DNA of 64,000 nt from Aquimarina longa SW024 (GTDB lineage Bacteria; Bacteroidota; Bacteroidia; Flavobacteriales; Flavobacteriaceae), in assembly GCF_001401755.1 (NCBI RefSeq), contig NZ_AVQK01000014.1, positions 124,001 through 188,000 of the forward strand, read 5' to 3'. Below are positions 36,892 through 60,597 of the stretch, in pieces. Every line of letters begins with the position of its first letter. Positions within the stretch are counted from its first letter, which is position 1. The position numbers and the translations under genes are program-made. The notes below the pieces were generated by a model. The model did not search any database. It was not told the origin of the DNA and worked only from the letters and a program-made list of their open reading frames with translations.

Positions 36892-36927
36892 TGTAATAGC
36901 AATTGCTATTACAACATTGTTAGCCAC
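36892..36927. repeat. Palindrome and left junction of the cassette array (attI-like candidate)
   Basis: A perfect 22-bp palindrome (36892-36913, half TGTAATAGCAA) abuts ACATTGTTAGCCAC (36914-36927), whose exact inverted copy is at the end of the first cassette (38038-38051). The putative crossover is G36919^TT. No integrase gene neighbours it in the window, so calling it an attI is speculative; it could also be a truncated attC. Confidence 0.5.
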
Positions 36928-36939
36928 AAGCAGAGCAAA

Positions 36940-38064
36940 ATGCGGATAACTTTAATCATATTAATTGGAATACACGGGATTATCCATTTATTTGGTTTTT
37001 TTAAAGCATTTGGTATATCTGAATTTCAAGCGATTTCACAACCGGTTTTAAAAACTTACGGAATATTTTGGTTACTAGCATTTGTTCTATTTGCTATAAC
37101 AATTGTTCTAGTTCTTATACATTCCGATTATTGGTGGTTAAGTGGGATTTTGGCAGTTATTATTTCGCAAATACTAATTTTTAATTATTGGTCAGAAGCA
37201 AAATTTGGGACAATAGCTAACCTAGTAGTTCTAATAGCAGCAATTATTGGGTATTCAAGATTCAAATTTGAAGATAAAATCAAAAGAGAAAGAACCGTGT
37301 TATTCGAAAATTCGCAGCTCAAAAGCCAAGAAATTGTTACTAAAGAAGCTATAAAAGATTTACCTCTAATAGTTCAAAAATGGTTAATTAGCAGTGGAGT
37401 AATCGGCGAGAAAATGGTTTCAAATGTGTATTTAACTCAAGAATTACAGCTTAAACTCAAACCTGAACAAACAGACTGGTATAATAGTACAGCAGAACAA
37501 TATTTTACCATTTCCCCGCCTTCGTTCAGCTGGAACATTAAGACAGAAATGAATGCGATATTGAGTGTAGTAGGTAGAGATAAATTTGAAAACGGCAAAG
37601 GCGAAATGTTAATAAAGCTCCTTTCACTCATCCCAATTGCAAATGCAAGGAATAGCGAAAAAGTAAATCAAGCAACTTTACAGCGGTTTTTGGCAGAAAT
37701 TGTTTGGTTCCCTTCAGCTTCTCTTAACCAGTACATAAAATGGGAGTCTATAAACGACTATTCTGCCAAAGCGACAATGGAATATAAAGGAACTAAAGGT
37801 TCGGGTGAATTTTATTTTGATGAAAATGGAAATTTTAAAAAAGTTGCGGCAATGCGTTACAAAGATGCAACTGATGCAGAGCCTACCAAATGGACTGTTA
37901 TCGCAACCAAAATTGAAGATAGAAATGGAATAAAAATACCTACAGAATGTGAAGCAAATTGGTATTTGGAAGATGGCAAATGGAATTGGTTGAAATTAAA
38001 AATAAGAGATATTAAATATAATGCGAAAATAATGCCAGTGGCTAACAATGTATATAAAAAATAG
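36940..38064 (+). CDS. Cassette 1: membrane protein with DUF6544-like domain
   Basis: A 374-residue protein taken from the ATG at 36940, 15 bp after the crossover box; an upstream ATG at 36886 lies before the junction and is rejected. Four hydrophobic segments (residues 3-20, 38-60, 65-85 and 88-105) are followed by a ~250-residue soluble domain (LPLIVQKWLISSGVIGEKM...; AKATMEYKGTKGSGEFYFDE) that looks like DUF6544 (formerly DUF6920). The last codons run through the R'' arm of the attC-like site (GTGGCTAAC encodes part of VAN). Function unknown. Confidence 0.7.
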   Translation: MRITLIILIGIHGIIHLFGFFKAFGISEFQAISQPVLKTYGIFWLLAFVLFAITIVLVLIHSDYWWLSGILAVIISQILIFNYWSEAKFGTIANLVVLIAAIIGYSRFKFEDKIKRERTVLFENSQLKSQEIVTKEAIKDLPLIVQKWLISSGVIGEKMVSNVYLTQELQLKLKPEQTDWYNSTAEQYFTISPPSFSWNIKTEMNAILSVVGRDKFENGKGEMLIKLLSLIPIANARNSEKVNQATLQRFLAEIVWFPSASLNQYIKWESINDYSAKATMEYKGTKGSGEFYFDENGNFKKVAAMRYKDATDAEPTKWTVIATKIEDRNGIKIPTECEANWYLEDGKWNWLKLKIRDIKYNAKIMPVANNVYKK

Positions 38065-38173
38065 GCGAAACAGCAATAAAATAAAGAACTTGGCTTGTAT
38101 CAAACTTTGTGTTTAACTGAAAGCTCAGTACTTCAAAATCGCCTACTTTTCATATACGTAACCGTTGTAGCTA
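38038..38173 (+). repeat. attC-like site 1
   Basis: R'' GTGGCTAAC (38038-38046) pairs with the start of its own cassette GTTAGCCAC (36919-36927). Inner arms TAGGCGA and TCGCCTA at both ends of a ~70-bp core, then ATACGTAACC before R' GTTGTAGC (38164). Confidence 0.75.
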
Positions 38174-38178
38174 ATTTG

Positions 38179-39027
38179 ATGAACGAAACAACATATCACC
38201 TTAACCAAGGAATTGAAACGATTTTAGATATTCATTTATATCTTATAATCGGGTTAATAATTTCTACAATATTTTCGTTTTCTATATTAAAAGGAACAAA
38301 TAACAGATTAGGGAAATCGATTATTCTAAACTCTTTCTTTTATATATCAATATTAATTTTCTATCAATTATCAATTGAAAAAAATCTTCATATAGCTATT
38401 TTTAGTGCCGAAAAAAAAGAAGAACCTTGGCTGGTAATATCTTTTATAATCACATTTATAATCATTACATATTTTCAAGTTTTGATATTTAGAAAATGGT
38501 TTGAAAAAAAAATAAAAAGCCAATTATTTATCTCAAATTTTATTTTCCTAACAACTATTTTGATTGTTTTCTATCCAAAAAATTATACAAATGAGAATAT
38601 TATTGATTACGACAGAATTTTATTTCTACCAGACAAAAATGAATTTGAATTACTAAATAATACTATTATAAGAATTGACACAGCTTGTACTTCGAAAGAT
38701 AATTACATTAACGGAAAAGTAAATAATTCTTATAATTTTAGAGTACCGATAATTAGTAATAAGAATGAAAGAATGAAGTTTGGGTTCCAACTTCTAAATA
38801 AATCAAATCAATTTGGAACATCAGAAAATGGGAGTGATTGTAAAGTATTACCATTAAAAAAGTTGAATGACAAAATTATTGTTTTAATTAAACAAAAGAA
38901 TCCAAATAAAAATATAGGTTGGAAAAAACCAATTATAACAGATACAATAACATACAGAAAAATAAAAGAGGAAAAACGAAAAACTGGTTATTATGGAGAT
39001 GCAGATTGTGATTGTATTGAACATTAA
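38179..39027 (+). CDS. Cassette 2: four-span membrane protein of unknown function
   Basis: A 282-residue protein from the ATG at 38179, 8 bp after the R' box. The longer frame from 38095 would start inside the attC-like site and is rejected. Four membrane spans in residues 15-145 are followed by a soluble C-terminal domain of ~135 residues ending with the cysteine-rich DADCDCIEH. No family recognized. Confidence 0.65.
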   Translation: MNETTYHLNQGIETILDIHLYLIIGLIISTIFSFSILKGTNNRLGKSIILNSFFYISILIFYQLSIEKNLHIAIFSAEKKEEPWLVISFIITFIIITYFQVLIFRKWFEKKIKSQLFISNFIFLTTILIVFYPKNYTNENIIDYDRILFLPDKNEFELLNNTIIRIDTACTSKDNYINGKVNNSYNFRVPIISNKNERMKFGFQLLNKSNQFGTSENGSDCKVLPLKKLNDKIIVLIKQKNPNKNIGWKKPIITDTITYRKIKEEKRKTGYYGDADCDCIEH

Positions 39028-39032
39028 AAAAC

Positions 39033-39170
39033 TAGCTACAACACCGTGTATAATTAATTGCTGGTTATAGCCTACTTACGAAAGTCCTCGCGGACTTTCT
39101 ATCTGTGATTTATTTGCTAACTTTAGTGCTTAAATCACGCAACTAACCATACACAAACACGTTGTGCATA
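39033..39170 (+). repeat. attC-like site 2
   Basis: R'' TAGCTACAAC matches its own cassette start GTTGTAGCTA (38164-38173) perfectly. Core contains the stem GAAAGTCC-tcgc-GGACTTTC and TTAGTGCTTAA. R' is GTTGTGCATA (39161-39170). Same core subtype as site 5. Confidence 0.8.
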
Positions 39171-39181
39171 ATTGAAGAAAA

Positions 39182-39835
39182 ATGTTGTTTCAAAAGAAAA
39201 TTAAGCCTAAAAAAATAAAAGATAAGAATACTAGAGAATTACGTTCTTCTGGAATTGAAGTAATTGAACACCTACCCTATTTGGATAGTCCTGAATTTAG
39301 AGAACCAAAAGAAATTGCTCGTAGAACAATGGTTCTCACAGCATTATTTCAGTTGCATCTTCAAGCACCAAGAGAAATAATAAAAAAATGGCTTAAAGAA
39401 AACGGACTTTTAACGAAACTAAACGCTGAGGAATTAGAGTATTTGGAAACAGAATATTCTGACTTGCCCGAACAAACTCAAACCGATATTTATTGGTTTG
39501 TAGAAGCTATTTGGGCTTTCGCTTGGGTAGGTGGATTTCATAATAATCTGACTTTGAATACTGGTGTGGAAGATTCACTTGCTTCTTTAATTCCAAACAT
39601 TGCGAAAAACGAACCAGCTGAAAAATTTATATCTGAATTCAAATTGAGAAATCAAGTGGATATCTTTAAAATGTTAGACAAGTTTTATCGTGCTCATTGG
39701 TTCGCTCGAAATAACAACTTAACTGGAAAACAATCGGACAAAGTTGATTTGGACATAATATTGGAAAGAAGAAAAGCATTAGAATATACAGTTTACAAAG
39801 AATTTGATTGGGATGAAATTTCACTTAACACCTAA
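39182..39835 (+). CDS. Cassette 3: DUF4272 family protein
   Basis: A 217-residue soluble protein with the DUF4272 signature (YLDSPEFREPKEIARRTMVL, then LTALFQLHLQAPREIIKKWL, and IYWFVEAIWAFAWVGG). The family has no known activity. It fills its cassette alone, starting 21 bp after the crossover and stopping 6 bp before R''. Confidence 0.85.
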   Translation: MLFQKKIKPKKIKDKNTRELRSSGIEVIEHLPYLDSPEFREPKEIARRTMVLTALFQLHLQAPREIIKKWLKENGLLTKLNAEELEYLETEYSDLPEQTQTDIYWFVEAIWAFAWVGGFHNNLTLNTGVEDSLASLIPNIAKNEPAEKFISEFKLRNQVDIFKMLDKFYRAHWFARNNNLTGKQSDKVDLDIILERRKALEYTVYKEFDWDEISLNT

Positions 39836-39841
39836 AACAAC

Positions 39842-40044
39842 TATGCACAACACAGTGTATAAAACATAGCTAATAAGTGCTAAACCGAAAGGTTTGTGTA
39901 TATTTATAAAGACCGCCAAATTTTTAATTTGGATTTTAAAAAGAGAAAAATTAAAAACAAAATATAAAAATTTGGCTCTGTGTTAACCCGAAAAGTTAGC
40001 GTCTTTTTACACGCTACGTTTCATACACAAGACCGTTGTACTCA
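39842..40044 (+). repeat. attC-like site 3
   Basis: R'' TATGCACAAC pairs with its cassette's start GTTGTGCATA (39161-39170). About 200 bp, with arms GTGTATAAAACATAGC and GCTACGTTTCATACAC and a TTTGGCTCTGTG core; CAAGACC precedes R' GTTGTACTCA (40035). Confidence 0.75.
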
Positions 40045-40064
40045 ATTGCTAATTAGAATTCAAA

Positions 40065-40235
40065 ATGGGAATATTTAAGAACATATTTAAAAAGAATAAA
40101 TCAATACCTGAGTTTGACTTTATTGAAACGTATGAGCACAAAGACAAATATTTTTCAAGAATAAAAAAATGGAATTGGATTAACTCTGAACAAATTTCAA
40201 TATTTGAAAAAGATGAAAAAGGAAAAATAAAATGA
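40065..40235 (+). CDS. Cassette 4: small hypothetical protein
   Basis: A 56-residue basic protein beginning MGIFKNIFKKNKSIPEFDFI. The stop overlaps the next start (ATGA at 40232). Short N-termini of this type occur in small immunity-like or chaperone-like proteins, but I recognize no family. Position 30 bp after the crossover and coupling to the next gene support it as real. Confidence 0.5.
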   Translation: MGIFKNIFKKNKSIPEFDFIETYEHKDKYFSRIKKWNWINSEQISIFEKDEKGKIK

Positions 40236-41530
40236 AAGCAAGTAAAGTAGAAAATAATTCAAAATCTGTAAATTCAAGCAAAACTCCTTTTTTCAATAGA
40301 AATGGAGAGAATTCTTTTTTTGGGAATAAAGATTTTTTCTTCAGCCCTTCTACCCCTTTACAGACTAAACTAATCGACGGAGAAAATCAAACTTTTTCTG
40401 ATATTAAGGATAAAGGGAAAGATGATTCTGGCATTTCAGAATATGTAGTTCAATCAGGTGACGGAGCTTATAGAATTGCAAAAAAGAATAATGTAAATGT
40501 TCATGAATTCTTGAAATTAAATGGATTAAAATTAACAAATAAATCAAAGGTAGTTTATTTGAAATCAGGGAAAGAAAAGGTTTTTGAAATAGGAGAAACA
40601 GTTAAAATACCACCAAATACTGATAGGAGTTTAGACGCTAAAAAAATATCAACTGAGAAAGAACCCAAACCTGAACCGAAAACCAAAATCAACATCTTTG
40701 TTACACCTAAATCTGATAAAACAACCGAAAGTAGTATGGATGATTTAGGTGCCTGGGCAAATGATGGAATTGATGATGCTACACAATTAAATGAAAAAGG
40801 GGCAGATAATGCCACAGAATTTTCCTTTAGAAAAGTGGGCTATATTGATAATCTACGAACTATTAAAATAGAAAATTTAGACGACCTAATTAAGCAATTA
40901 GAAAATATGAAGGCTGGAACTGAAGTTGGTATAAATTATCTTTATTTTAGTTCTCATGGAAGTTATAATTCTCCTTCTTTCTATATCGGTTCTCATTATG
41001 ATGGGAAAGGGAAATGGAGTTCAAAAAATAAGATTAGCATGGGAAATGTAAGCAAGCTTAATAAACTTAGTAAATTCCTTAGCCCAAAAACAAAAGTGTT
41101 AATTATGGCTTGTCATACAGGTGGAGGAAAAAACACAAAACAGTCTGAGAAATTCGTACAAGAATTAGCAAATCAACTAAATGCGACTGTATACGCAAAT
41201 AGAAGCTGGGGGTTAGCATCATCTGGAAATTTTGAAGATAATCTTTATGCATACACTAATGCGTTATATGGAGACGAAACTCAAGATTTATATAAGAAGA
41301 AACCCAATGCATTCAAGTTTATGGGAACTATGTTGAAAGCAATGCCTCAAAAGAAAGGTGAAAAATCAGTTCCAGAAATTACAAATGCCCTTATCTTAAA
41401 AAGAGATGGTACTTTCAAGGTAATGGAATCTAATTACAATAAAGTCATCAAAAAGGTTTTAGATAAAATCGCTAAAGGAGGCACCTATAAATCAAAAAAA
41501 GAAATGGTCGATGATAAAGAAATCAAATAA
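40232..41530 (+). CDS. Cassette 4: LysM plus caspase-fold (clan CD-like) protein with eCIS-type N-terminus
   Basis: A 432-residue protein in three parts. Residues 15-48 contain PFFNRNGENSFF, FFFSPSTPLQTKL, the same pattern as the N-termini of DUF4157/eCIS-associated proteins of Bacteroidota (FF...iQtKL). A LysM domain follows at about 70-126 (YVVQSGDGAYRIAKKNNVNV). A domain at about 150-345 shows a catalytic-type His in LYFSSHG (H242) and Cys in LIMACHTGGG (C294), the His-Cys dyad arrangement of caspase-like peptidases. I infer a secreted effector or peptidase. Coupled to a tiny upstream gene and overlapping the downstream lipoprotein gene. Confidence 0.65.
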   Translation: MKASKVENNSKSVNSSKTPFFNRNGENSFFGNKDFFFSPSTPLQTKLIDGENQTFSDIKDKGKDDSGISEYVVQSGDGAYRIAKKNNVNVHEFLKLNGLKLTNKSKVVYLKSGKEKVFEIGETVKIPPNTDRSLDAKKISTEKEPKPEPKTKINIFVTPKSDKTTESSMDDLGAWANDGIDDATQLNEKGADNATEFSFRKVGYIDNLRTIKIENLDDLIKQLENMKAGTEVGINYLYFSSHGSYNSPSFYIGSHYDGKGKWSSKNKISMGNVSKLNKLSKFLSPKTKVLIMACHTGGGKNTKQSEKFVQELANQLNATVYANRSWGLASSGNFEDNLYAYTNALYGDETQDLYKKKPNAFKFMGTMLKAMPQKKGEKSVPEITNALILKRDGTFKVMESNYNKVIKKVLDKIAKGGTYKSKKEMVDDKEIK

Positions 41531-42263: not shown

Positions 42264-42267
42264 AAAC

Positions 42268-42342
42268 GCCGCCTAACAATGCATAAAACGTTCATTGCCA
42301 GTAAAATCTGGCAATGCCGTTTATGCGAGACCGTTAGCCATT
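42268..42342 (+). repeat. attC-like site 4 (classic ~70 bp form)
   Basis: The most textbook site: R'' GCCGCCTAAC, L'' TGCATAAAACG, apical stem CATTGCCAG-taaaat-CTGGCAATG, L' CGTTTATGCG, spacer AGACC, R' GTTAGCCATT. The upstream cassette's start (GTTGTACTCA) does not pair with this R''. Confidence 0.85.
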
Positions 42343-42346
42343 ATTT

Positions 42347-42964: not shown

Positions 42965-43084
42965 ATGGAAAAAGCGAATAAAGTATGGCTAACTGAACTT
43001 GGAACTGAAATTGCTAAAGCTTTAACTGATGAGTCATTGATATTAGAAAGAAAGATTGAAATAGGGAATAAAAACAATGGCTAA
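42965..43084 (+). CDS. Cassette 5: 39-residue hypothetical protein
   Basis: MEKANKVWLTELGTEIAKAL start; its stop codon TAA lies within R'' (GGCTAAC) of attC-like site 5. Short and without known relatives. The stop-in-R'' arrangement, seen also at 52487, supports translation, but it could be chance. Confidence 0.35.
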   Translation: MEKANKVWLTELGTEIAKALTDESLILERKIEIGNKNNG

Positions 43085-43124
43085 CAATGTGTATAATTCA
43101 TTGCTGGCTATTGCCTACTTACGA

Positions 43125-44153
43125 ACCTGAGTTCGACGTAAGAAAACAGATTTTATAGTATAGAAAAAGCAGAATATTTAGTAAATTAAAGTGCTGAATT
43201 CCAATTAACTAAAATTATTCTGCTTATGATTTCTAAAGATAAAATTACTGAAATATTTTGTTCTATTGATGATTTTTGTGCTGTTTATGAGCCTGCTATG
43301 CGAAAAAGACAAGTTACCACAGGTAAAAAGACCAGAAATCGAAAATTTAGGATGTCTACAAGCGAGATAGTAACTATTACGATATTGTTTCATTTAAGTG
43401 GGATACGAACTTTTAAACATTTCTATATTTTATATGTGCAACAACAATTACAAAGTGAATTTCCTAATACTGTTTCTTATAATCGTTTTGTAGAATTAAT
43501 GCAATCTAATCTAATGCCTTTGACTCTGTTTTTGAAGACTTGTTGTTTGGGAGAGTGTACAGGTATTTCTTTTATAGATTCGACTCCAATTAGAGCTTGC
43601 AAGAATAAGAGAATTAGCAATAATAAAGTCTTTAAAGATATTGCTACTATAGGAAAATCAACAATGGGATGGTTCTATGGTTTCAAGCTTCATATCATTA
43701 TTAACGATAAAGGTGAACTCCTTGATTTCATTATTACTCAGGCCAATGTAGATGATAGGACGCCTTTGAAAAGAGACAACTTTCTAAAGAAAATATTTGG
43801 AAGTTTATATGCCGATAAAGGCTATATATCTAAGGAATTAACTTCGATATTATTCGATCAAGGATTGCATTTAGTGACTAATATTAAAAATAATATGAAA
43901 AATGTATTAATGACAATGAGAGATAAGATACTACTAAGGAAAAGATCCGTAATTGAAACTATAAATGATCAATTAAAAAACATTGCTCAAGCAGAACATT
44001 CCAGACATAGAAGCTTTGGTAATTTTATTACCAATCTTGTCGCTAGCCTTATTGCTTATTGTTTTCAAGAAAAGAAACCAGCTATTAAATTTGAAACTGA
44101 AAACACATCACAATTAGCACTGTTTTGCTAAAATCCTTAGATCGAGTTCAGGT
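43125..44153 (+). mobile_element. IS982-family insertion sequence
   Basis: A 1029-bp element. Terminal inverted repeats ACCTGAGTTCGACGTAAG (left) and, reading inward from the right, ACCTGAACTCGATCTAAG (14 of 18 match). Direct duplication TACGA at 43120-43124 and 44154-44158. One intact transposase frame. Confidence 0.9.
43226..44131 (+). CDS. IS982-family transposase
   Basis: A 301-residue DDE transposase: ISFIDSTPIRACKNKRISNN (first Asp), LYADKGYIS (second Asp), KRSVIETINDQLKN (Glu). The frame is intact, so the copy may be active or recently so. Confidence 0.92.
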   Translation: MISKDKITEIFCSIDDFCAVYEPAMRKRQVTTGKKTRNRKFRMSTSEIVTITILFHLSGIRTFKHFYILYVQQQLQSEFPNTVSYNRFVELMQSNLMPLTLFLKTCCLGECTGISFIDSTPIRACKNKRISNNKVFKDIATIGKSTMGWFYGFKLHIIINDKGELLDFIITQANVDDRTPLKRDNFLKKIFGSLYADKGYISKELTSILFDQGLHLVTNIKNNMKNVLMTMRDKILLRKRSVIETINDQLKNIAQAEHSRHRSFGNFITNLVASLIAYCFQEKKPAIKFETENTSQLALFC

Positions 44154-44276
44154 TACGAAAGTCCTCGCGGACTTTCTATCTGTGATTTATTTACTAACTT
44201 TAGTGCTTAACACGCAACGAAATCATACACTAGACCGTTGTAAACAAGTAAAAACTATAGAGTGCAAAATAACACT

Positions 44277-44759: not shown

Positions 44760-46073
44760 ATGATAATGGTTAAAAACACCAGATATACTGTAATTCTATT
44801 ATTCCTATTTATTTTTTCGAGCTGTAATAATAAATCAGAAGAAGAAACTGAAATGACAGTTGAAAAATGGGAAAATGATATTGAAAATCTCTTTAATACT
44901 TTAAAATCGAAGCATATAAATCTTTATCACAGCTTACCTGAAATTGAAATGGAACAAGCGGTAGACAGCTTACTAAAAAATCTTCCTGATCTTTCAGATG
45001 ATCAAATTTTTATACGTCTTTCAAAAATAATAAGATCATTAGATGATAGTCACACTGGAATATGGGCTCAACCCAAGTTTTATAACACCTATCCTTTAGA
45101 GTTTTTTATTTTTAGCGATACGGAGATAAGGGTCTTAAGAACTCCAAAAGATTACCCGGAACTATTAGGAGCGAAACTAGTCGGTATAGATAATACTACC
45201 TTGAACGAAATAATAAGCAAAGTACTTCTCGTGATTCAATGTGCAGATAATTGGTATTCTGAAAGGGATCGATTAGCTAGATATCTAAAATATTCCAAAG
45301 TCTTAAAAGCATTGGAAATCACCAATGAAGGCGAATCTGCTAACTTTGAGTTTATATTAGAAAATGGCACATATAAAACAATTAAACTAGAAGCACTTCC
45401 ACAAACTGAATATCTGGCATCCCTTAAAGATCCAATTAATCTAGAAAGTCCATTCAGTTTTGAGGAATCTTTGATAGGAACTCCCTATTTATGGTATCAA
45501 CCAATCGATAAGCTCAAAACAGGATATCTTTATTTTGCAGCATACCCAAGCGCGTTGCAAATGAGACGATTTGCTGTTGCCCTATCAAGAGATGTAATTC
45601 AAAGAGGTACTAAAAATATTATTATTGATGTAAGAGATAATGGCGGAGGGAATTTCTATGTTGGTTTAGAACTTATAAAATTACTATCATCCACTGATCA
45701 AATTGATTGGAAAAATGGAGTTTACGTTATAACGGGAAGAAAGACATATTCAGCAGGAATGAGTAACACTGCTCATTTTAAGGAATTATTAAATGCAAAA
45801 ATTGTTGGAGAGCGCACAGGAGGAAATCCAAACGATTATCAGGATGCCGAAATGTTTCAATTACAAAACTCAAAATTACAGGTGCAATTTTCCAAGAGAT
45901 ATTACAGATTTCAAGATACTATTTCGAATGGAATCATTCCTGATGTTCATATCAAACCAAGTTGGAAAATGCTAAACAATAAAATTGATGCTAATATAAA
46001 ATGGGTTTTAGAGGATATTAAACAGAATGAGGACAATAAAAGCCAGTTTACAACAATGTATAAGCGACATTAA
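44760..46073 (+). CDS. Cassette 6: S41-family (tail-specific protease-like) lipoprotein
   Basis: A 437-residue protein with a lipoprotein signal (FIFSSC, Cys22), the DSHTGI stretch (96-101), IIIDVRDNGGG (287-297), a candidate nucleophile Ser331 in GRKTYSAGM, and GERTGGNP. These are S41/CtpA peptidase hallmarks, without a clear PDZ. Its final codons run through R'' (GTTTACAAC, 46046) of attC-like site 6. Confidence 0.8.
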   Translation: MIMVKNTRYTVILLFLFIFSSCNNKSEEETEMTVEKWENDIENLFNTLKSKHINLYHSLPEIEMEQAVDSLLKNLPDLSDDQIFIRLSKIIRSLDDSHTGIWAQPKFYNTYPLEFFIFSDTEIRVLRTPKDYPELLGAKLVGIDNTTLNEIISKVLLVIQCADNWYSERDRLARYLKYSKVLKALEITNEGESANFEFILENGTYKTIKLEALPQTEYLASLKDPINLESPFSFEESLIGTPYLWYQPIDKLKTGYLYFAAYPSALQMRRFAVALSRDVIQRGTKNIIIDVRDNGGGNFYVGLELIKLLSSTDQIDWKNGVYVITGRKTYSAGMSNTAHFKELLNAKIVGERTGGNPNDYQDAEMFQLQNSKLQVQFSKRYYRFQDTISNGIIPDVHIKPSWKMLNNKIDANIKWVLEDIKQNEDNKSQFTTMYKRH

Positions 46074-46103
46074 AACGACCGCTTATACAGTCCGTTGGCA
46101 GTA
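46046..46103 (+). repeat. attC-like site 6 (58 bp)
   Basis: R'' GTTTACAAC pairs with its cassette start GTTGTAAAC (44237). Arms GTATAAGCG and CGCTTATAC, spacer AGTCC, R' GTTGGCAGTA (46094-46103). Overlaps the 3' end of the S41-like gene. Confidence 0.85.
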
Positions 46104-47070: not shown

Positions 47071-47193
47071 TACTGCCAACAAAGTATAAAGCACACAACA
47101 CTATGTATATTTCATTTGGCAAATAGTTTGTCTTCGCTATCGCTACGCAAACGATTATCACCAAACAAAAACATACATTTAACGTTGTAATGC
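47071..47193 (+). repeat. attC-like site 7 with possible nested arm
   Basis: R'' TACTGCCAAC pairs perfectly with its cassette start GTTGGCAGTA (46094-46103). Twenty bases further a second R''-like stretch GCACACAAC is present before the arms CATTTGGC and R' GTTGTAATGC (47184-47193). It may be a fusion of two sites. Confidence 0.7.
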
Positions 47194-48301: not shown

Positions 48302-48441
48302 GCATTACAACAATGGCTATAAGTAATTGCTTGGGTATGGTAAGTTCCAATCGGAAAATTCGGAGAATTTTCCTCAGTTTAATGACTTTTGCTATCTTAG
48401 TGCTCTTAAGCAATTACTCATAGCTGAGACCGTTGTAAAAC
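48302..48441 (+). repeat. attC-like site 8
   Basis: R'' GCATTACAAC pairs with its own cassette start GTTGTAATGC (47184-47193). Arms CTATAAGTAATTGCTT and AAGCAATTACTCATAG, GAGACC, R' GTTGTAAAAC (48432-48441). Confidence 0.8.
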
Positions 48442-49133: not shown

Positions 49134-49159
49134 AAAAACGTTTTACAACAGTGGTAACC

Positions 49160-50867
49160 GTTGCACAACCCTATAATTTCACGAAAAATGACTTTAAATA
49201 AGCCTTTTTAAGAGGCTTGTTTTTTTAGTAATTGTAAGCTGTTTTTAATTTAGAGTGGCTTAAAAAGTAATATATAAAGCCTATGAACATCAATTTTATT
49301 AAAAACAATGTATTTATGGTTTTAGCCTTACTTTTTATAGTCTTTTTTATAAATTTTAAATACTTTTTCAAATTATAAGCCATTGCGGATACATGCATCA
49401 CCTTATTTGCTTGCTTGATTCCTAATGTATTTATTTTTCGAAGTCCCATAAACTGGGTTAATGTGCCAAAAACAGGCTCTACAGTACTTTGCCGTTTACC
49501 TTTCATATAACCACCTTTTTTACTATTTACTCGTTTGTTATCACGTTCATATTCTTCTTGGTAATAGGTAACACTAAACTTTTTCTCTTTTGCTGTTTTC
49601 CTTAAGCATTGGTTCTTTATAGGACAGGTTTTACATAGTTTACTTGATCCTCGATATTCTTTCTTCTTTGTTTGTGTTCTATAATCTAAAAATACTTTTT
49701 TAAATGGAATGATTTTCCCTTTTGGACATTGATAATAATCTTCTTTTTTATGATAAATAAAACCTTCTGGTCCGCCTTTGTAAGTTCCATGAGGTGGTAT
49801 AAAACTGGTGATGCCTTTTTTTTCTAAATAAGCATATACCTCACCACTACTATACCCTGTATCGGCTATGCAGTTTTCTAATAAAAAACCAGAGCGCCAT
49901 AATCGTTTATACAAACGGTTTATAATATCTTCTAAACATAGACTGTCTTTTTTATCGGCATGATAAGCTTGTATATCAGTAATCACATGATTTGCTGTAT
50001 CTACACTAAGTTGACTACTATAATTTAATTTTCGTGCCTTACCTGGTTTTACACTAATTCGTGCATCTGGATCCGTAGGACTGTAATGTGTTTTATTACT
50101 GGTGTAACGACTTCCTTTATTATTGGCACCCGGACGATGATTTTGGTCTTTTTTCCATTTTTATTTCGTGATACAATACTATCTAATCCCTGTTTATTGG
50201 CACTTAGTGTCCTTTGTTCTTTGGTAGTTTCATCTTGCTTTGCCTTTCTAAAAACTTCTTTATCTCGGTTGCTTATATGACCAATGGAAGCTAAATGAGA
50301 TGCTAAATCTTCTTTGGGAACTTTTAACTCCAAACTATCCATACTAGCATTGGCTTTTATTGGTGCTGAATCAATTGCTTGAGTATGTCCACTTACCATA
50401 CCATTTTCTACGCACATTTCTAATACTTTGGTAAAAACAGTTTCAAAAACGGACTCTGGAAATAGTTGACGAGTACGACTAAAGGTAGAATGCCAAGGGA
50501 GTTTTTCATCGATGTCGTAATCTAAAAAATATAACAAATCTAAACGCATACTACAATGAGAAATCAGTTTACGATCGCTGATAATATTTTCTAAGTAACC
50601 GATTAAATTGAGCTTAAAAAACACGATAGGGTCTATACTTTTTTGTCCGCTTTTACCATAGTAACATGCCGTTTCTTTATATAAAAATTCTAATTGGAGT
50701 ATGTCTTTTAATCGTCTGTAAAAATTAGCTGCGGGTACATGATCGCTTAAGCGAAAACTATTAAATAACTTCTCTTGGTATATTTTAATGCCTTGCATCA
50801 ATAAAAATAAGAAACCTATTAAATCTCAACTCTATTCTAATCTTATTTTTTTGTTAACTTGTGCAAC
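49160..50867 (-). mobile_element. IS1182-like insertion sequence
   Basis: Ends GTTGCACAA and TTGTGCAAC as 9-bp inverted repeats enclose a minus-strand IS1182-type transposase in two frames. No target duplication is evident. Element length about 1.7 kb is normal for the family. Confidence 0.75.
49225..50801 (-). pseudogene. IS1182-type transposase split by a frameshift
   Basis: N-terminal part at 50801-50049 (MMQGIKIYQEKLFNSFRLSD, SAPIKANASMDSL) and C-terminal part at 49986-49225 (IADTGYSSGEVYAYLEKKGI, KRQSTVEPVFGTLTQFMGLR). The two join in the -1 frame at GGA AAA AAG (plus-strand T run 50149-50154), after which the text reads DQNHRPGANNKGSRYTSNK as in intact relatives. A AAA AAG is a slippery heptamer, so programmed frameshifting, a real mutation and a sequencing slip are all possible. 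Confidence 0.75.
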
Positions 50868-51074
50868 AGACACAATGTATAAAAAACATAGGGCGGTTTA
50901 AGTTTATTCGAAATGTTGAGGCTTATCCGTTATGTCGCCAAATATAAAATTTGGTGTTTCAATATTGAAGATAAACACAAAACATTATATTTGGCTTAGT
51001 TATAAACGTGGAGTTAGTGATTAACCACCTGCCCTACGTTTCTTATACGAGACGTTACCTACAAGCTCAAAAAA

Positions 51075-51712: not shown

Positions 51713-52489
51713 ATGCTAAATATTCATCACATACGAAATGCTACTATGGTTCTTGAAACAGAAAATGAAGTTATTTTAATTGACCCAATGTTAGGAGATG
51801 TAGGAATTATGCCTTCATTTACATTATTCAGGCATAAAGCAAGAAAAAACCCTATCGTTCCACTACCACACAAGGTAAATTCTATACTTGAAAAAGTAAC
51901 TCATTGTTTAATTACACATCAACACCCTGACCACATAGATAGTAAGGGAATACAGTTCTTGATTAAAAATGATATTCCTATTACTTGTAGTATCAAAGAT
52001 GAAAAGGCATTAACCAAAAGAGGACTAAATATAGTTCAAACATTAAAATACTGGGAAGAACAAACTTTTTTAGGAGGTACAATTGAAGGAATACCAGCTA
52101 AACACGGTTATGGATTTGTTTCTAAATTAATGGGTAATGTAATTGGTTTTTTTATCAAACTTCCACAACAAAAATCTATTTATATAAGCTCTGATACAAT
52201 ATACACAGAGTCGGTTGACAAAGTACTAAAGAATTACAAACCGGAGATTAGTGTTTTAGCTTGTGGAACAGCTCAATTTGACTTATTTAACAAACTTATT
52301 ATGGATATGAATGATATTTTAAAGTTTGTTAAAAATACATCAGGAAAAGTAATTGCTAATCATATGGAATCCATAAATCATTGTCCATTAACTCGAAAAA
52401 AACTAAGAGAAATATTGATTAAGAACAGCTTAATAAATAAAGTTCTTATTCCCGAAGATGGAGATGTGATAGAAATAACCAGTAGGTAA
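51713..52489 (+). CDS. Cassette 10: metallo-beta-lactamase-fold hydrolase
   Basis: A 258-residue protein with the metal-binding THQHPDHID motif, DPMLGDVGIMP at the start and ISSDTIYTESV (metal Asp). Resembles UlaG-like L-ascorbate lactonase relatives. Its stop codon TAA (52487-52489) is inside R'' GTAGGTAAC of the following attC-like site. Confidence 0.8.
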   Translation: MLNIHHIRNATMVLETENEVILIDPMLGDVGIMPSFTLFRHKARKNPIVPLPHKVNSILEKVTHCLITHQHPDHIDSKGIQFLIKNDIPITCSIKDEKALTKRGLNIVQTLKYWEEQTFLGGTIEGIPAKHGYGFVSKLMGNVIGFFIKLPQQKSIYISSDTIYTESVDKVLKNYKPEISVLACGTAQFDLFNKLIMDMNDILKFVKNTSGKVIANHMESINHCPLTRKKLREILIKNSLINKVLIPEDGDVIEITSR

Positions 52490-52682
52490 CAATGTATAAG
52501 AAAACATAGGGCTGTTTAGGTAAAACTTAGAAGCCAGTGCTTCTTTACAAAGTCACCAACTATAAAATTTGGCATTTTCAATAAAAAAGATAAAAGCAAA
52601 ATATTATATTTGGCTTAGTACCAATCCGAAACGTATCGCTTATCACCTGCCCTACGTTTCATACACGATACCGTTGTGGGTA
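52482..52682 (+). repeat. attC-like site 10
   Basis: R'' GTAGGTAAC pairs with the start of its cassette GTTACCTAC (51054-51062). About 200 bp; arms AACATAGGGC and GCCCTACGTTTC, TTTGGCTTAGT core, ATACC before R' GTTGTGGGTA (52673-52682). Confidence 0.8.
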
Positions 52683-53811: not shown

Positions 53812-53946
53812 TACCCACAACATTGTATAAAAATAATAGCGGTTTAATGACTAAAACGAAAGTAAGAAAATATAAAAAAGCCTGTGTTTAAACGAAAAGT
53901 TAGTGGTTACAAATCCGCTACTGCTTATACTTGACCGTTGTGGGTA
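53812..53946 (+). repeat. attC-like site 11
   Basis: R'' TACCCACAAC pairs perfectly with cassette start GTTGTGGGTA (52673-52682). Arms AATAGCGG and CCGCTA, then TTGACC before R' GTTGTGGGTA (53937-53946), which is identical to the previous cassette's start. Confidence 0.8.
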
Positions 53947-55310: not shown

Positions 55311-55416
55311 AAACTATTAACACCGTGTATAATTCATTGCTAGTAAAGGCTTACTTACGAAAATCCGAGCGAATTTTCTATTCGGTTTGTATTTGCTAAA
55401 TTAGGTGCTTAAAACA
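55305..55416 (+). repeat. 112-bp exact direct repeat, copy 1
   Basis: Identical to 60441-60552. It starts at GAATAA, the last codons of both flanking genes, and covers most of attC-like sites 12 and 13. Identity stops at a T/C difference. Confidence 0.9.
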
Positions 55417-55449
55417 TGCAACAAATCATACACAAACACGTTGGCAACA
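55313..55449 (+). repeat. attC-like site 12
   Basis: R'' ACTATTAAC, core TTACGAAAATCCGAGCGAATTT, R' GTTGGCAACA (55440). R'' does not pair with the start of its own cassette (GTTGTGGGTA), unlike most. Confidence 0.7.
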
Positions 55450-55671: not shown

Positions 55672-56181
55672 ATGCAAAAATCAATCATTATTTCCAAAGT
55701 TTTATACTACATCTCTAGGGTATTGGGCGGAATATACTTAATTACTGGATTATATGGATTATTTAGCTGGGTTACAAACACCCATTTATTAATAAAAAAT
55801 CAGCAAACAATTATCAACTATCCCTTTACAGAGGAATCTTTTTTAATTTTAGATAGTAACACAACGTATTTGGTTTTTTCGTTTTTAATTCCCGTTTTTG
55901 CGTATGGTTTATTTTTTTGGTTGCTATCTAATGTTTTTAAGGTTTTTTACCAGAATAAGTTATTTACCGCAGAAAATATTGCTCATTTGCGACGGTTTTA
56001 TCTTGTCAATATATTTCTGCCTACTGCGCTTACTACATTCGCATCATTTTTTATGCAAATAGAACATGAAATGTTTTTAATCATTATCCTGCATCTTGTT
56101 CTTGGCGTTTTTGTGTTTTTTATGTCAGAAATATTTAACCAAGGATTGAATTTACAAAACGAACAAGACTTATATATCTAA
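55672..56181 (+). CDS. Cassette 13: DUF2975 membrane protein
   Basis: A 169-residue protein with four membrane spans and the DUF2975 loop VFKVFYQNKLFTAENIAHLRRFY. Members usually pair with a YozG-type XRE regulator, exactly as here (3 bp spacing). Confidence 0.8.
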   Translation: MQKSIIISKVLYYISRVLGGIYLITGLYGLFSWVTNTHLLIKNQQTIINYPFTEESFLILDSNTTYLVFSFLIPVFAYGLFFWLLSNVFKVFYQNKLFTAENIAHLRRFYLVNIFLPTALTTFASFFMQIEHEMFLIIILHLVLGVFVFFMSEIFNQGLNLQNEQDLYI

Positions 56182-56184
56182 ACT

Positions 56185-56388
56185 ATGCCAATTGTAATAA
56201 ATATAGACGTGATGCTTGCCAAACGAAAAATGAAGAGTAAAGAGTTGGTTAAAGAAATTGGCATTACAGCTGCAAATTTATCAATACTGAAAAATGGAAA
56301 AGCCAAAGGCATTCGCTTTGAAACTTTAGAAAAAATATGTAAAGCCTTGGATTGTAAACCTGGAGACATCATAGACTATGTAGACTAG
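56185..56388 (+). CDS. Cassette 13: XRE-family (YozG-like) regulator
   Basis: A 67-residue helix-turn-helix protein (MLAKRKMKSKELVKEIGITA, FETLEKICKALDCKPGDIID). Minimal repressor size. Directly follows the DUF2975 gene and likely regulates this cassette. Confidence 0.85.
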   Translation: MPIVINIDVMLAKRKMKSKELVKEIGITAANLSILKNGKAKGIRFETLEKICKALDCKPGDIIDYVD

Positions 56389-56409
56389 TTTTTCTTTAAA
56401 TATTATCTT

Positions 56410-57282
56410 ATGAATGCTTTGAATATCAATAATGTATCCCTTGTGTATAACAACGGATACCAAGCACTTAATGTCATAAATATAGAAATAACAAACGGTG
56501 TTTTTGGCTTACTTGGGCCTAACGGCGCAGGAAAATCTTCGCTTATGAAAACCATCGTAGGTTTACAAAAACCATCGGAAGGACAAGTTTTTTTTAACGA
56601 TGTAGATATTGTAAAAAAACCATTAGAGATACAAAAGCAGTTAGGTTTTTTACCACAGTATTTTGGTGTTTATCCTAAAGTTTCGGCTTATAATTTATTG
56701 CAACATTTAGCTAAATTAAAAGGCATTCATAACAAAAAAGAATGTCATGACCAAATTATGAATCTTCTGGATAAAGTGAATATAGTTGATGCTAAAAACA
56801 AAGAAGTACATACGTTTTCTGGCGGAATGAAACAACGTTTTGGTGTGGCTCAAGCTTTATTAGGAAATCCTAAAATTGTTATAGTAGACGAACCTACAGC
56901 AGGTTTAGATCCTGAAGAACGTAATAGATTTAATGCGTTATTGAGCGAAATAGGTGAAGACATTATCATTTTATTATCCACCCATTTGGTAGAAGATGTA
57001 CGAAATCTTTGTTCGGAAATGGCGATTATAAAACAAGGAACTATTGTCGCAAAAGATAGCCCAAATCAATTTATTGATGCATTGCAAGGGAAAATATGGC
57101 AAAAAGCGACCAACAAGAGTGAGCTTCTTAATATAGAGTCAAACAATAATGTAATCAGCAAACAATTTATTGAAAAGGTTATGCATGTAACCGTGTATGC
57201 TGATGCTTGCCCTACTGGGTTTAAAGCTGTAACGCCTAATTTAGAACACGTTTACTTCACTTATTTAAACAATGCGAAATGA
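56410..57282 (+). CDS. Cassette 13: ABC transporter ATP-binding protein
   Basis: A 290-residue ATPase with Walker A GPNGAGKSS, signature FSGGMKQR and Walker B IVIVDEPTAGLD. It overlaps the permease start by 4 bp. It belongs to the ABC-2 exporter group. Confidence 0.92.
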   Translation: MNALNINNVSLVYNNGYQALNVINIEITNGVFGLLGPNGAGKSSLMKTIVGLQKPSEGQVFFNDVDIVKKPLEIQKQLGFLPQYFGVYPKVSAYNLLQHLAKLKGIHNKKECHDQIMNLLDKVNIVDAKNKEVHTFSGGMKQRFGVAQALLGNPKIVIVDEPTAGLDPEERNRFNALLSEIGEDIIILLSTHLVEDVRNLCSEMAIIKQGTIVAKDSPNQFIDALQGKIWQKATNKSELLNIESNNNVISKQFIEKVMHVTVYADACPTGFKAVTPNLEHVYFTYLNNAK

Positions 57283-60200
57283 AAACGGTTTTACTTAACG
57301 ATATATACAGCTCACTAAAACAAATAGCGACTCAATTTGCGTTGTTAGCTTATTTAGTACTTGGTTTTTTTGCAGGTTTTAAGTTTCATATTAATGTAGG
57401 CGACGGCATTGCAGCCAATGCGCCCTATTCGGTTGGATTTATGACTGGTTTGTTAAGCCTAATTATTATTTTGATAGCAACATTATTGGCTTTTTCTGGG
57501 CTATTTAAGGAAAGTGACACTAATTTTGGCTTAATCGTATTTACAACACCCACAAAGAAACGCGACTTTGCTTTAGCACGCTTTTTATCCTTCTTTTTAC
57601 TTACTGCATTTAGTTTTCTTATTTTAATGCTTGGTTATGTTATAGGATTGCATGTACAAACAGGTTCTGAAATGCTTTCAGGGTTTAATCTATGGCATTA
57701 TGTATATTCTTTTTTAATTTTTGGTGTGGTCAACAGTTTATTGGTATGCAGTATTCTGTTTTTCTTTGCTAAACAATTTCAGAATAAATTATTGGTTGCT
57801 ATTGCAGGTTTAATGCTGTATATAACCTATATGATTGTGTTAATGTTTTCAAACGCTCCGTTTATGGCGCAATCATTACCACAGTCTTTATTAGCTCAAA
57901 AAATATCTGCCATAACAGATGTTTTTGGGTTATCGGCTTATTTTTATGATGCCAAAGACTTTAATGTCTTTGAAAGAAACCATAACACTGTTTCGTTTAG
58001 TAATATTCTGTTAATAAATCGTTTAGGCGTTGTCCTGTTATCATTAATTATAGTAAAATCAGGTATACGTGCGTTCTCATTTCTGCCAGTTTTCAAGCAA
58101 AAGTTAAAAAAGAAACATACTGTAGCAACGTCTGAGAAGACTAAATTTTTAGATATGCCATTTGCAATAGCTGGCACTTTATTTAATTCTAAAACAAAAC
58201 GGAAAGCCCTCTACTCTTTTGTGAAAATCGATCTTATTTATTTGTTTAAAAGTATTCCGCTTATTTCGGTTTCTGCCTTACTCTTATTTTATGTAGGTGT
58301 AGAAATGTATGGTGATATTGATATGGGCATTAGGCTACCACAACAATACGCTAGCTCTGGCTTGTTAGCTAAAACTATTAATGAGACATTTTACTTTATA
58401 GGCGCTTTGGTTGTGGTTTACTTTACAAACGATGTGTTTTGGCGCGCAAATACAAGTGGCTTTTCAATAATTCAAAACACAACCTATTATGCAAGAGAAC
58501 GATTATTGGGACATAGTGTAAGTATGGTGTTTTTAATCACATTTCTTACAGGTTTAATGCTCTTGGAAGCTGTTATTTTTCAACTTGGTTTTAAATATCT
58601 TTATATTGATTGGCAGGCGTATTTTGGTATTTTAACCTTTAATACATTACCACTCATACTCCTTTCCTTAATACTTCTTTTTATAAATAGTATTTGCAAA
58701 AGTAAATCTGTTGCATTAGGCATTTCAATCTTATTATTCTTATTGTTTATAACTCCTATTTCAAAAAGCATCATAACGAATCCGTTGTTTAGGTTTTTAT
58801 CTGGCTACAAAGGTGCTTATAGCCATTTTATAGGTTACGGCCCTTATTTAACGATATTTATTTACAGACTAGCTTTTGGGTTTACTCTTGTAGGACTTCT
58901 ATTTACTTTATTTCATTTGATAAAAACTAAAGCTATAAAATACCGTTTGCTTATTGTATCTATTACTTTTGTAAGCATAGCCATTTTAAGTGGGTTTTCA
59001 TTTTTAGATGGTTATGTTTCAAAAGATAAAGATTCCGCTATTCTAGAGCGAGTTGCTTACGAAAAGCAATACCGAAAATACCAGAACCTTCCGCAGCCAA
59101 TAATAAAAAAGGTTCACACAGAAATAGATTTATTCCCAGAAGAAAAAGCATATAATATAAAAGGCTCTTACCGGTTGGTAAACAAACATAACCAAGCTAT
59201 AGACTCTATACTTATTAGCGTACCTAAAGATTTTGAGATACAATCACTTTCCTTTTATTATAAAAATGATACGATAAGGTTAGACAGTTCTATTTTTGAA
59301 ATAAAATTAAAACACGCAATACAAGCCAAAGACTCGGCAAAACTTACTTTTAATTTGGCTTATAAATGGCAAGCTGTAAACAGTCACAATCCTTTTAATG
59401 CTATTGTTAAGGATGGTTCTTTTATGCGAATTAGTCGTTATTTCCCTCGTTTTGGATATGATGCTAGCAAGGAACTTTTAGATAAGACTATTAGAAAACA
59501 ACATGCATTGGGTGAAGTAACAGCCATGAAACCATTTGATGCTGCAAAGACCACTGTAGATGATTTTATTGCGTTGGACATGCAAATTTCAACAGATAAA
59601 AATCAAATTACTGTTGGTACTGGTGAATTAAAATTGCATTGGCAAGAGGCTAATAGGCATTACTATACCTATCAAGCAGATGACATACCTTTTAGGTTTG
59701 CGGTTGCTTCAGCTAAATATGAGGTTAAAAAAGTACAACATATGGATGTTTCAATTGAGGTTTTATACCATCCTTTGCATGAAGACAATGTAGATCATCT
59801 TATTGAAAACACAAAATTGTCATTAGATTATTGCACCAAGTACTTTGGTCCTTACCCTTTTTCTTCTGTTAAATTTGCTGAAGTTTCATCATTTACACAA
59901 GGTTTTGCAGGAACCGCTTATCCTGGTGTTATATTTATGACAGAGCATATGACGTTTCATGCTAACCTAGCAGGTAATTACAATCAAGATGTAATTAATG
60001 AACTGGCTGGACATGAAGTAGCGCATTTTTGGTGGGGAACAAACCAGATTGATCCCGATTATCGCGAAGGCTATGGGATGTTAACAGAAAGTTTGGCAAT
60101 GTATACCGAAATGATGATTTATAAACACATGTACGGTAAAGACAAAATGTTAGAACGTGTGGCGATACACAAACAAATATATGATGCTGAAAAAGGTTTT

Positions 60201-60446
60201 AGTGATGATAATTCTTTATTGAAAGCCACAAAAAACAATGCCTTCGTTTCCTATTCTAAAGGTGCTATTGTTTTTGTAGAATTGAGTGAGATGCTTGGAG
60301 AGGAACGATTGAACTTAGCATTACGTACTTTTTTAGAACAACACGCTTATCCTAACGCGAAGCCTATTTCAACTGATTTACTAAAAGAGATTTTGAAGAT
60401 TAGCGATGAAACTCTTAATGAGAAAATTAAAGCCATGTTTGAATAA
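57279..60446 (+). CDS. Cassette 13: ABC permease fused to an M1-type metallopeptidase
   Basis: A 1055-residue protein. Residues 1-590 carry about a dozen membrane spans of an ABC-2 permease, and the rest is an M1 (gluzincin) peptidase domain with HEVAH (H912, H916), a glutamate in MLTESLAMY (E937) and the catalytic-Tyr-region YSKGAIVF. Such permease-peptidase fusions occur in Bacteroidota; the natural substrate is unknown. Its stop is GAATAA, immediately followed by the attC-like site. Confidence 0.85.
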   Translation: MKTVLLNDIYSSLKQIATQFALLAYLVLGFFAGFKFHINVGDGIAANAPYSVGFMTGLLSLIIILIATLLAFSGLFKESDTNFGLIVFTTPTKKRDFALARFLSFFLLTAFSFLILMLGYVIGLHVQTGSEMLSGFNLWHYVYSFLIFGVVNSLLVCSILFFFAKQFQNKLLVAIAGLMLYITYMIVLMFSNAPFMAQSLPQSLLAQKISAITDVFGLSAYFYDAKDFNVFERNHNTVSFSNILLINRLGVVLLSLIIVKSGIRAFSFLPVFKQKLKKKHTVATSEKTKFLDMPFAIAGTLFNSKTKRKALYSFVKIDLIYLFKSIPLISVSALLLFYVGVEMYGDIDMGIRLPQQYASSGLLAKTINETFYFIGALVVVYFTNDVFWRANTSGFSIIQNTTYYARERLLGHSVSMVFLITFLTGLMLLEAVIFQLGFKYLYIDWQAYFGILTFNTLPLILLSLILLFINSICKSKSVALGISILLFLLFITPISKSIITNPLFRFLSGYKGAYSHFIGYGPYLTIFIYRLAFGFTLVGLLFTLFHLIKTKAIKYRLLIVSITFVSIAILSGFSFLDGYVSKDKDSAILERVAYEKQYRKYQNLPQPIIKKVHTEIDLFPEEKAYNIKGSYRLVNKHNQAIDSILISVPKDFEIQSLSFYYKNDTIRLDSSIFEIKLKHAIQAKDSAKLTFNLAYKWQAVNSHNPFNAIVKDGSFMRISRYFPRFGYDASKELLDKTIRKQHALGEVTAMKPFDAAKTTVDDFIALDMQISTDKNQITVGTGELKLHWQEANRHYYTYQADDIPFRFAVASAKYEVKKVQHMDVSIEVLYHPLHEDNVDHLIENTKLSLDYCTKYFGPYPFSSVKFAEVSSFTQGFAGTAYPGVIFMTEHMTFHANLAGNYNQDVINELAGHEVAHFWWGTNQIDPDYREGYGMLTESLAMYTEMMIYKHMYGKDKMLERVAIHKQIYDAEKGFSDDNSLLKATKNNAFVSYSKGAIVFVELSEMLGEERLNLALRTFLEQHAYPNAKPISTDLLKEILKISDETLNEKIKAMFE

Positions 60447-60552
60447 AAACTATTAACACCGTGTATAATTCATTGCTAGTAAAGGCTTACTTACGAAAAT
60501 CCGAGCGAATTTTCTATTCGGTTTGTATTTGCTAAATTAGGTGCTTAAAACA
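60441..60552 (+). repeat. 112-bp exact direct repeat, copy 2
   Basis: Identical to 55305-55416. The two copies flank the 5-kb ABC/M1 cassette. Confidence 0.9.
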
Positions 60553-60597
60553 CGCAACGAAATCATACACTAGACCGTCAAACTGACGTTGCGTCAT
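60449..60597 (+). repeat. attC-like site 13 (last of the array)
   Basis: R'' ACTATTAAC, ending TCATACACTAGACC like site 5, then GTCAAACTGAC before GTTGCGTCA (60588). The extra 11 bases and lack of pairing to the cassette start suggest a rearranged or decayed site. Confidence 0.6.

What the first reader, a model, noticed from the sequence alone, without database searches (positions are those of the whole stretch)
36919..60597. An integron-like cassette array with 13 attC-like sites in a flavobacterial chromosome
Seen: 13 structured, 58-200 bp (IS insertions excluded) imperfect palindromes separate + strand cassettes of one to five genes. Every palindrome begins with a variable arm ending AAC and finishes with GTT plus a variable arm; most have GACC or similar just before GTT and inner arms around GTATA/TATAC. 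Established: R''..AAC, L'', L', GTT..R' with extrahelical bases is the plan of integron attC sites, and clusters without integrase are called CALIN. Inference: this is a mobile cassette reservoir. Core subtypes recur (sites 2 and 5; 9 and 10; 12 and 13). I do not know of an array like this described in this phylum, which is not proof that none exists.
Basis: partly seen in the sequence, partly recalled or inferred. Interest (0 to 1): 0.95.

Follow-up and report, generated by a model that had tools for sequence, protein, structure and literature searches.

The report
Overlooked integron system in marine flavobacteria
This stretch of a flavobacterial chromosome is a row of gene cassettes separated by hairpin sites, one of its cassettes sits as an exact unit at an unrelated place in the same genome, and the cassettes are probably captured and shuffled by a recombinase that lacks a domain thought essential in known integron enzymes, so a large group of bacteria likely has its own overlooked gene-collecting system.

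Summary
Confirmed and extended. The window holds 13 attC-like sites on one strand, behind an attI site that keeps a relic of an integrase gene's 3' end. The two ends of a cassette are inverted repeats of each other (10 of 13 window cassettes; 233 of 310 over all arrays, permuted mean 6), as expected if cassettes circularise. Window cassette 1 has a 99.5% copy elsewhere in the genome whose homology stops at the GTT triplets. Integrase genes lie directly before an identical attI on two other contigs, and about 80 further sites lie in the 7% of the genome examined. Around 60 related integrase genes, 102 same-strand sites lie downstream, none upstream. Two sister species share integrase and attI (94%) but not the cassettes behind them. 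The integrase is not canonical IntI: it lacks the IntI insertion (13 of 13 tested) and branches outside IntI. Its sites mostly lack GTTRRRY, over half show no extrahelical base, and they carry positioned A.C mismatches (T.G on the bottom strand). Recombination is untested; coupling of sites with integrase across the genus was not shown. Ten literature searches found no description. A new variant of integron.

The parts
36831..36892 (+). relic of the 3' end of the integrase gene, up to the attI palindrome
   Evidence: 36831-36922 is 90.2% identical over 92 bp to L017 and 90.7% over 86 bp to L018; identical from CTAGATTTGTAA to GTT
36893..36921 (+). attI: 20-bp palindrome GTAATAGCAATTGCTATTAC, then AACATT and GTT
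   Evidence: the same sequence follows the integrase stop codon in L017 and L018
36920..38164 (+). cassette 1 (DUF6544/DUF6920 gene)
   Evidence: 99.5% copy in L024, homology 36919-38166, flanks unrelated
38044..38166 (+). attC site 1
39040..39163 (+). attC site 2
39849..40037 (+). attC site 3
42275..42335 (+). attC site 4
   Evidence: held-out model hit, E 2.4e-7
43083..44239 (+). attC site 5, split by an IS (transposase 43226-44131)
46052..46096 (+). attC site 6
   Evidence: held-out model hit, E 9.8e-5
47078..47186 (+). attC site 7, composite with inner site 47097-47186
   Evidence: held-out model hit for the inner part, E 5.1e-6
48309..48434 (+). attC site 8
49147..51056 (+). attC site 9, split by an IS1182-like element (about 49.15-50.87 kb)
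52488..52675 (+). attC site 10
53819..53939 (+). attC site 11
   Evidence: used in the model
55319..55442 (+). attC site 12
60455..60579 (+). attC site 13, core nearly identical to site 12, ends in GTC

Best explanation
The block is an integron cassette array whose own integrase gene is lost, and its cassettes were most likely inserted one at a time by a tyrosine recombinase without the IntI-specific domain, predicted to join the GTT of an attI site to the folded bottom strand of each cassette's attC hairpin. Shown by sequence: attI with an integrase relic; 13 attC-like sites; integrase genes before an identical attI on two other contigs; cassette ends that match within a cassette; whole-cassette copies that end at the GTT triplets; and unrelated cassettes behind a shared integrase and attI in related species. 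Inferred: that this integrase is the enzyme; that the bottom strand is the substrate; that positioned T.G wobbles, unequal spacers and, in under half of the sites, a bulged base tell the strands apart; and that cassettes travel as circles.
For: Own-end rule: 10 of 13 window cassettes plus the IS unit, summed score 101 against a permuted maximum of 88, 0 of 100000 permutations; 123 of 142 (permuted mean 3.5, maximum 11), arms of one site only 4 of 111; 233 of 310 (permuted mean 6.1, maximum 18). Window cassette 1 copied at 99.5% in L024, ends at GTT. 13 non-duplicate homologous cassette pairs, 10 of them homologous in the cassette only. Identical attI after the integrase stop in L017 and L018. 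102 same-strand and 0 opposite sites in 240,553 bp downstream of 60 integrase loci, 0 in 516,938 bp upstream. G426 and G408: 94.1% through integrase and attI, then unrelated. Covariation. Strand-neutral counts at stem position 7: A.C 225, G.T 1.
Against: No recombination was observed. Across 32 genus genomes the coupling fails with this model: matches in 18 of 24 genomes with the integrase and 7 of 8 without it. 3 of 13 window cassettes, and 77 of 310 overall, miss the own-end rule. The integrase lacks the domain that IntI is said to need. At stem position 11, 105 of 394 sites are G.T, against the strand rule, which I put down to shifted register.
Confidence: 0.87

Rival explanations
1. The cassettes are integron cassettes, but another enzyme (canonical IntI from elsewhere, or host XerC/XerD) moves them; the integrase next to attI is a bystander.
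For: Canonical IntI occurs in 105 of 395 phylum genomes; arrays also occur in genomes without a hit to this integrase at E <= 1e-40, such as G396, G398, G405.
Against: No IntI over the cut-off in this genome and one (G037) among 85 matched genomes of its class. Sites lie only downstream of this integrase in 60 loci, and its attI is the array's first junction.
Confidence: 0.07
2. The units are non-autonomous transposons with short terminal inverted repeats, set head to tail by chance or by homologous recombination at repeated palindromes.
For: Cassette ends are inverted repeats; some site families recur many times, which could recombine by homology.
Against: The repeat sequence differs from unit to unit while the core stays alike; arrays run on one strand; each array starts at an integrase attI; copies end at GTT although the flanking site types differ.
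Confidence: 0.04
3. The palindromes are ordinary terminators or repeats between genes of a block inherited as a whole.
For: Strong hairpins between genes are common, and a few genome-wide model hits stand alone (L224, L230).
Against: Covariation, own-end rule, strand bias and absence upstream, single-cassette copies.
Confidence: 0.02

Closest known systems
Sedentary chromosomal integrons (IntI, attI, attC), e.g. superintegrons
   Same: Integrase gene beside an attI, one-strand cassette arrays, sites bounded by AAC and GTT, paired bottom strand, single-cassette mobility.
   Different: Integrase without the IntI insertion and outside the IntI clade; GTTRRRY in only 26 of 310 cassette starts; no bulge in 199 of 367 stems where canonical sites have two extrahelical bases on one side (PMC3053210, passages seen); matching arms of 6-7 nt beyond GTT; palindromic attI after the integrase stop.
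Treponema integrons
   Same: intI transcribed toward attI, in the direction of the cassettes (PMC3607928, passages seen), as here.
   Different: Those are reported as IntI integrons; no direct sequence comparison was made here.
CALIN (clusters of attC sites without an integrase)
   Same: The window block has sites and no intact integrase.
   Different: It still has its attI and a relic of the gene, and integrases lie elsewhere in the genome.
XerA / archaeal Xer recombinases (NF040815)
   Same: The integrase meets this family's cut-off, 224.4 against 220 bits, and its model is closest to 4a8e and 5hxy (pTM 0.54).
   Different: It has an extra N-terminal part of about 100 residues before the SAM-like domain and sits at cassette arrays.
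CTXphi integration by host XerCD
   Same: A Xer enzyme without I2 acts on a folded single strand whose stem has no extrahelical bases (PMC4792948, passages seen).
   Different: There the enzyme is the host's; the same passages call it not a complete system.

Membership tests
Integron (IntI type) | Integrase with the IntI-specific additional domain (I2) | tested here: not met
   Absent in 13 of 13 of this family, present in 16 of 16 canonical IntI; IntI4 residues 200-247 have no counterpart
Integron (IntI type) | Score over the integron integrase family cut-off (TIGR02249) | tested here: not met
   188.4 bits against 265
Integron (IntI type) | Integrase inside the IntI clade | tested here: not met
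   IntI one clade at 100/99, this family one clade at 99/98; grouping the family with one IntI rejected, p-AU 0.0025. Sister relation to IntI or Xer unresolved
Integron (general) | Integrase gene next to an attI that opens the array | tested here: met
   C10 and C36 and related loci; at the window only a relic
Integron (general) | attC: imperfect palindrome between AAC and GTT, bottom strand the paired one | tested here: met
   pairing in cells not tested
Integron (general) | R' core consensus GTTRRRY | tested here: not met
   26 of 310; GTTR in 298 of 310
[quoted passage not shown]
   No bulge in the first 15 columns in 199 of 367; the commonest other form has one bulge
Integron (general) | Cassette is the unit of mobility, crossover at GTT | tested here: met
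   Copies bounded at GTT; position inside GTT not resolvable
Integron (general) | Cassette gain and loss between relatives at attI | tested here: met
   G426/G408 and G419/G400
Integron (general) | Integrase-dependent recombination | not testable with these tools
   needs a bench assay
Integron (general) | Match to the published attC models (IntegronFinder, HattCI) | not testable with these tools
   models not held; Rfam gave nothing at E <= 1
XerA-type recombinase (NF040815) | Score over the family cut-off | tested here: met
   224.4 and 222.1 bits against 220

The most novel reading that the evidence does not exclude
Bacteroidota carry a second lineage of integron, built on a Xer/XerA-type integrase that never had the I2 helix; its attC sites mark the strand with positioned G.T wobbles instead of paired extrahelical bases, its attI is a palindrome right after the integrase gene, and it arose apart from, or before, IntI integrons, so cassette capture from folded single strands does not need the domain held to define integron integrases.
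Probability: 0.45. Interest if true: 0.95.

Novelty: new variant of a known kind. Interest (0 to 1): 0.88.

Why it matters
At least one earlier survey selected integrases by the IntI additional domain (PMC2426708, passage seen), and the IntegronFinder 2.0 paper names one complete integron in Bacteroidetes proper, in Salinibacter (PMC9024848, passage seen). Here 24 of 32 genomes of one genus match the new integrase, two of them weakly and one broken, and about 80 sites outside the window were seen in 7% of one genome. A pool of mobile genes across a large part of a phylum may have been missed. Mechanistically, gain of an I2-like domain has been proposed as the step that permitted single-strand substrates (PMC4792948, passages seen); an integron without it makes that idea directly testable.

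Tried and rejected
Rfam over the array: nothing at E <= 1. Generic inverted-repeat listing: few of the sites stand out. Model R1 as a whole-genome detector: its first look scores only 150 candidates per genome and loses long sites; for example it gave 0 matches in G400, where my scanner finds 18 sites. Presence of sites and of the integrase did not go together: matches in 18 of 24 genus genomes with the integrase and 7 of 8 without. Of 79 listed hits I chose 14 regions to fetch: five hold 9 to 17 sites on one strand (L219, L221, L222, L223, L226), L229 nine on one strand and one on the other, L228 seven, L231 six, L227 four, L220 and L225 two each, L224 and L230 one each, L232 three on both strands. 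31 of the 85 cassettes of these regions miss the own-end rule.

Canonical IntI neighbourhoods as yardstick: highest count 11 in 345,777 bp against 97 in 375,566 bp of the new arrays; the scanner is tuned to the new geometry, so this shows only that the geometry differs. The scanner favours A.C, so the strand claim rests on the strand-neutral run, not on 647 A.C, 31 C.A and 10 G.T. In one search position 11 shows 105 G.T, which I put down to bulges shifting the register. attI palindromes: score 10 or more in 29 of 55 loci, 1 of 55 shuffled; 26 of 55 fall below, some because the tblastn match ends before the stop. One of the 102 downstream sites (L092) is probably the attI palindrome itself. The structure model has pTM 0.54 and served for fold ranking only. 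Plasmids: at best 43% identity over the whole protein, 55% over 62% of it; phages: 36%; no arrays were examined there.

Rows dropped: 11 of 24 cassette pairs are records fetched twice (L063 = G395, L074 = G425). Of the 13 left, three come from one trio (G419, G410 twice), three from another (G419 twice, G426).

Literature: ten searches of open-licence PMC only; no bioRxiv, few subscription papers. Passages were seen in PMC9024848, PMC8618304, PMC9668308, PMC8352920, PMC3607928, PMC2426708, PMC3053210, PMC2727003 and PMC4792948; other papers as listings only. An unsearched paper may describe this.

Full report
WHAT IS THERE. Between 36.9 and 60.6 kb lie 13 imperfect palindromes of the plan AAC - 3 nt - stem - 5 or 6 nt - GTT, all read on the + strand. 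The genes I assign between them lie on the + strand, apart from the pieces of one IS transposase. Of 17 cassette proteins scanned, 12 match Pfam (DUF6544/DUF6920, DUF4272, LysM, two S41 peptidases, ASCH, GNAT, DUF6438, a cyclic-nucleotide-binding protein, a metallo-beta-lactamase fold, a beta-lactamase-fold protein, DUF2975) and 5 match nothing; the ABC-transporter genes at 56.4-60.4 kb are named by reading only. The first element, at 36919, is not an attC. The stretch 36831-36922 is about 90% identical to the 3' end of an integrase gene plus the site after it on contigs C36 and C10 of the same genome, and identical from CTAGATTTGTAA to GTT. It is an attI whose gene was lost, leaving its last codons.

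THE SITES ARE REAL STRUCTURES. On 8 sites (outer stem halves, bottom strand) 95.4% of cells are paired and 8 pairs change on both sides; no shuffle of 500 equals this, and sliding the partner drops pairing to 28-52%. The structure was drawn from these sites, so the held-out hits matter: the model finds sites 4, 6 and the inner part of 7. The bottom strand folds better than the top in 12 of the 13 folds made (site 6 is the exception, and site 5 was too long). With strand-neutral scoring on 394 sites from all arrays, stem position 7 is A.C in 225, Watson-Crick in 154 and G.T in 1; position 12 is A.C in 205 and G.T in none. A.C on top is T.G below, so the bottom strand is the better paired one.

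CASSETTES MOVE SINGLY. In integrons a cassette's start pairs with its own end once it is circular (recalled). Here the nucleotides after GTT match the inverted ones before the next AAC in 11 of 14 window units; one unit is the IS, so in 10 of 13 cassettes; 0 of 100000 permutations reach the sum. Over arrays of the own genome and relatives 123 of 142 cassettes match at 6 or more of 7 positions (permuted mean 3.5), against 4 of 111 for the two arms of one site; with further arrays 233 of 310 (permuted mean 6.1). Window cassette 1 has a 99.5% copy inside an array on contig C27 (L024): homology begins at the GTT of attI and ends at the GTT of site 1, and the flanks differ. Of 13 non-duplicate homologous cassette pairs, 10 are homologous in the cassette only, 3 also in one flank. 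In G426 and G408 homology (94.1%) runs through integrase and attI and stops one base after the attI GTT; in G419 and G400 (89.5%) it stops 12 bases after it. In the 14 to 59 kb compared behind it, one 553-bp stretch (71.8%, G419/G400, at different places) is the only further match of 250 bp or more in these two pairs.

THE INTEGRASE. The genome has an open 375-residue gene on C10 and a copy cut by a contig end on C36, both directly before an identical attI, and pieces of a broken one on C5 with its own attI (L020). The C10 protein shows GLRRSE, HMLRHSFAT, LGH and IYT (their catalytic roles are recalled). NCBIfam puts it over the cut-off of NF040815 (224 against 220) and under that of the integron integrases TIGR02249 (188 against 265). 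The IntI insertion is present in 16 of 16 canonical IntI from other Bacteroidota and absent in 13 of 13 of this family. In the tree IntI is one clade (100/99) and this family another (99/98); which is nearer to Xer is open. Best folds are archaeal Xer and XerA, then IntI4. Around 60 loci with a relative of the integrase, 102 same-strand and 0 opposite sites lie in 240,553 bp downstream and none in 516,938 bp upstream. By record title sites occur in Flavobacteriales, a Lewinellaceae MAG and a Cytophagales MAG. In the genus 24 of 32 genomes match at E <= 1e-40, two weakly and in part (G404, G415), one broken (G397). The genus is probably Aquimarina: G413's contig length equals that of Aquimarina sp. 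MAR_2010_214. Canonical IntI occurs in 105 of 395 phylum genomes, but among 85 matched genomes of the window's class I see it listed in one, G037.

EXTENT. In 394,177 of the genome's 5,506,799 bp the scanner finds 89 sites, 8 of them in the window and at least two of the 89 chance; in each contig with three or more besides the window all lie on one strand. Contigs C25-C28, C31, C33, C38 and C40 carry them along most of their length. Complete genomes show 23 sites (G419) and 18 (G400, one more on the other strand) behind the integrase. Arrays without an integrase nearby also occur, also in genomes with no hit to it.

HOW IT PROBABLY WORKS. Inferred: the integrase binds a double-stranded palindromic attI and a folded attC bottom strand, exchanges one strand at GTT, and replication resolves the product, as in integrons. 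IntI reads extrahelical bases, one of them through the alpha-I2 helix (PMC3053210, passages seen). This enzyme lacks that insertion, and 199 of 367 sites have no bulge in the first 15 stem columns, while 363 of 367 carry at least one A.C or C.A there (the scanner favours A.C). I therefore think wobble pairs and unequal spacers (3 against 5-6 nt) give strand choice; in a canonical site without extrahelical bases the central spacer can do so (PMC2727003, passage seen).

AGAINST. No activity was seen. Sites and integrase did not go together across the genus with the model used: 18 of 24 with, 7 of 8 without. Three window cassettes and 77 of 310 overall fail the own-end rule. Prior work outside the searched library cannot be excluded.

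VERDICT. It works like an integron. As IntI integrons are defined it is not a member, because the integrase domain, family score and most of the site consensus fail. New variant of a known kind.

Noticed in passing
window 49134-50875 and L040 926-2668: An IS1182-like element (99.4% identical copies) sits at the same place, just after the AAC arm, of two attC sites with different cores, as if it targets attC sites.
   Followed up: partly
L229 (G415), sites between 684 and 12043: Seven cassettes in a row begin with the same hairpin, GTTCGAGTCCATACTC..., instead of a cassette-specific arm.
   Followed up: no
L022, L024, L028 (own genome) and G419: Short cassettes of 231-372 bp without a long reading frame (longest 30-40 codons) recur in several arrays; perhaps promoter-bearing or selfish cassettes.
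   Followed up: partly
L020 7380-7520 (G000:C5): A third integrase remnant of another subtype, followed by a different palindromic attI.
   Followed up: partly
window 55319-55442 and 60455-60579: Sites 12 and 13 are near-identical, left arm included, and enclose the 5-kb ABC-transporter stretch; it may have come in by homologous recombination.
   Followed up: no
window 36460-36680: Direct repeats of about 20 bp (gttccgacagagtaattatg-like) just before the attI relic.
   Followed up: no
window 62373-63835: Reading frames that look like PAAR and VgrG-like spike proteins next to the array; named by eye only.
   Followed up: no
L168 (G037:C40): The one genome of the window's class whose integrase passes the canonical IntI cut-off; its neighbourhood was not studied on its own.
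   Followed up: no
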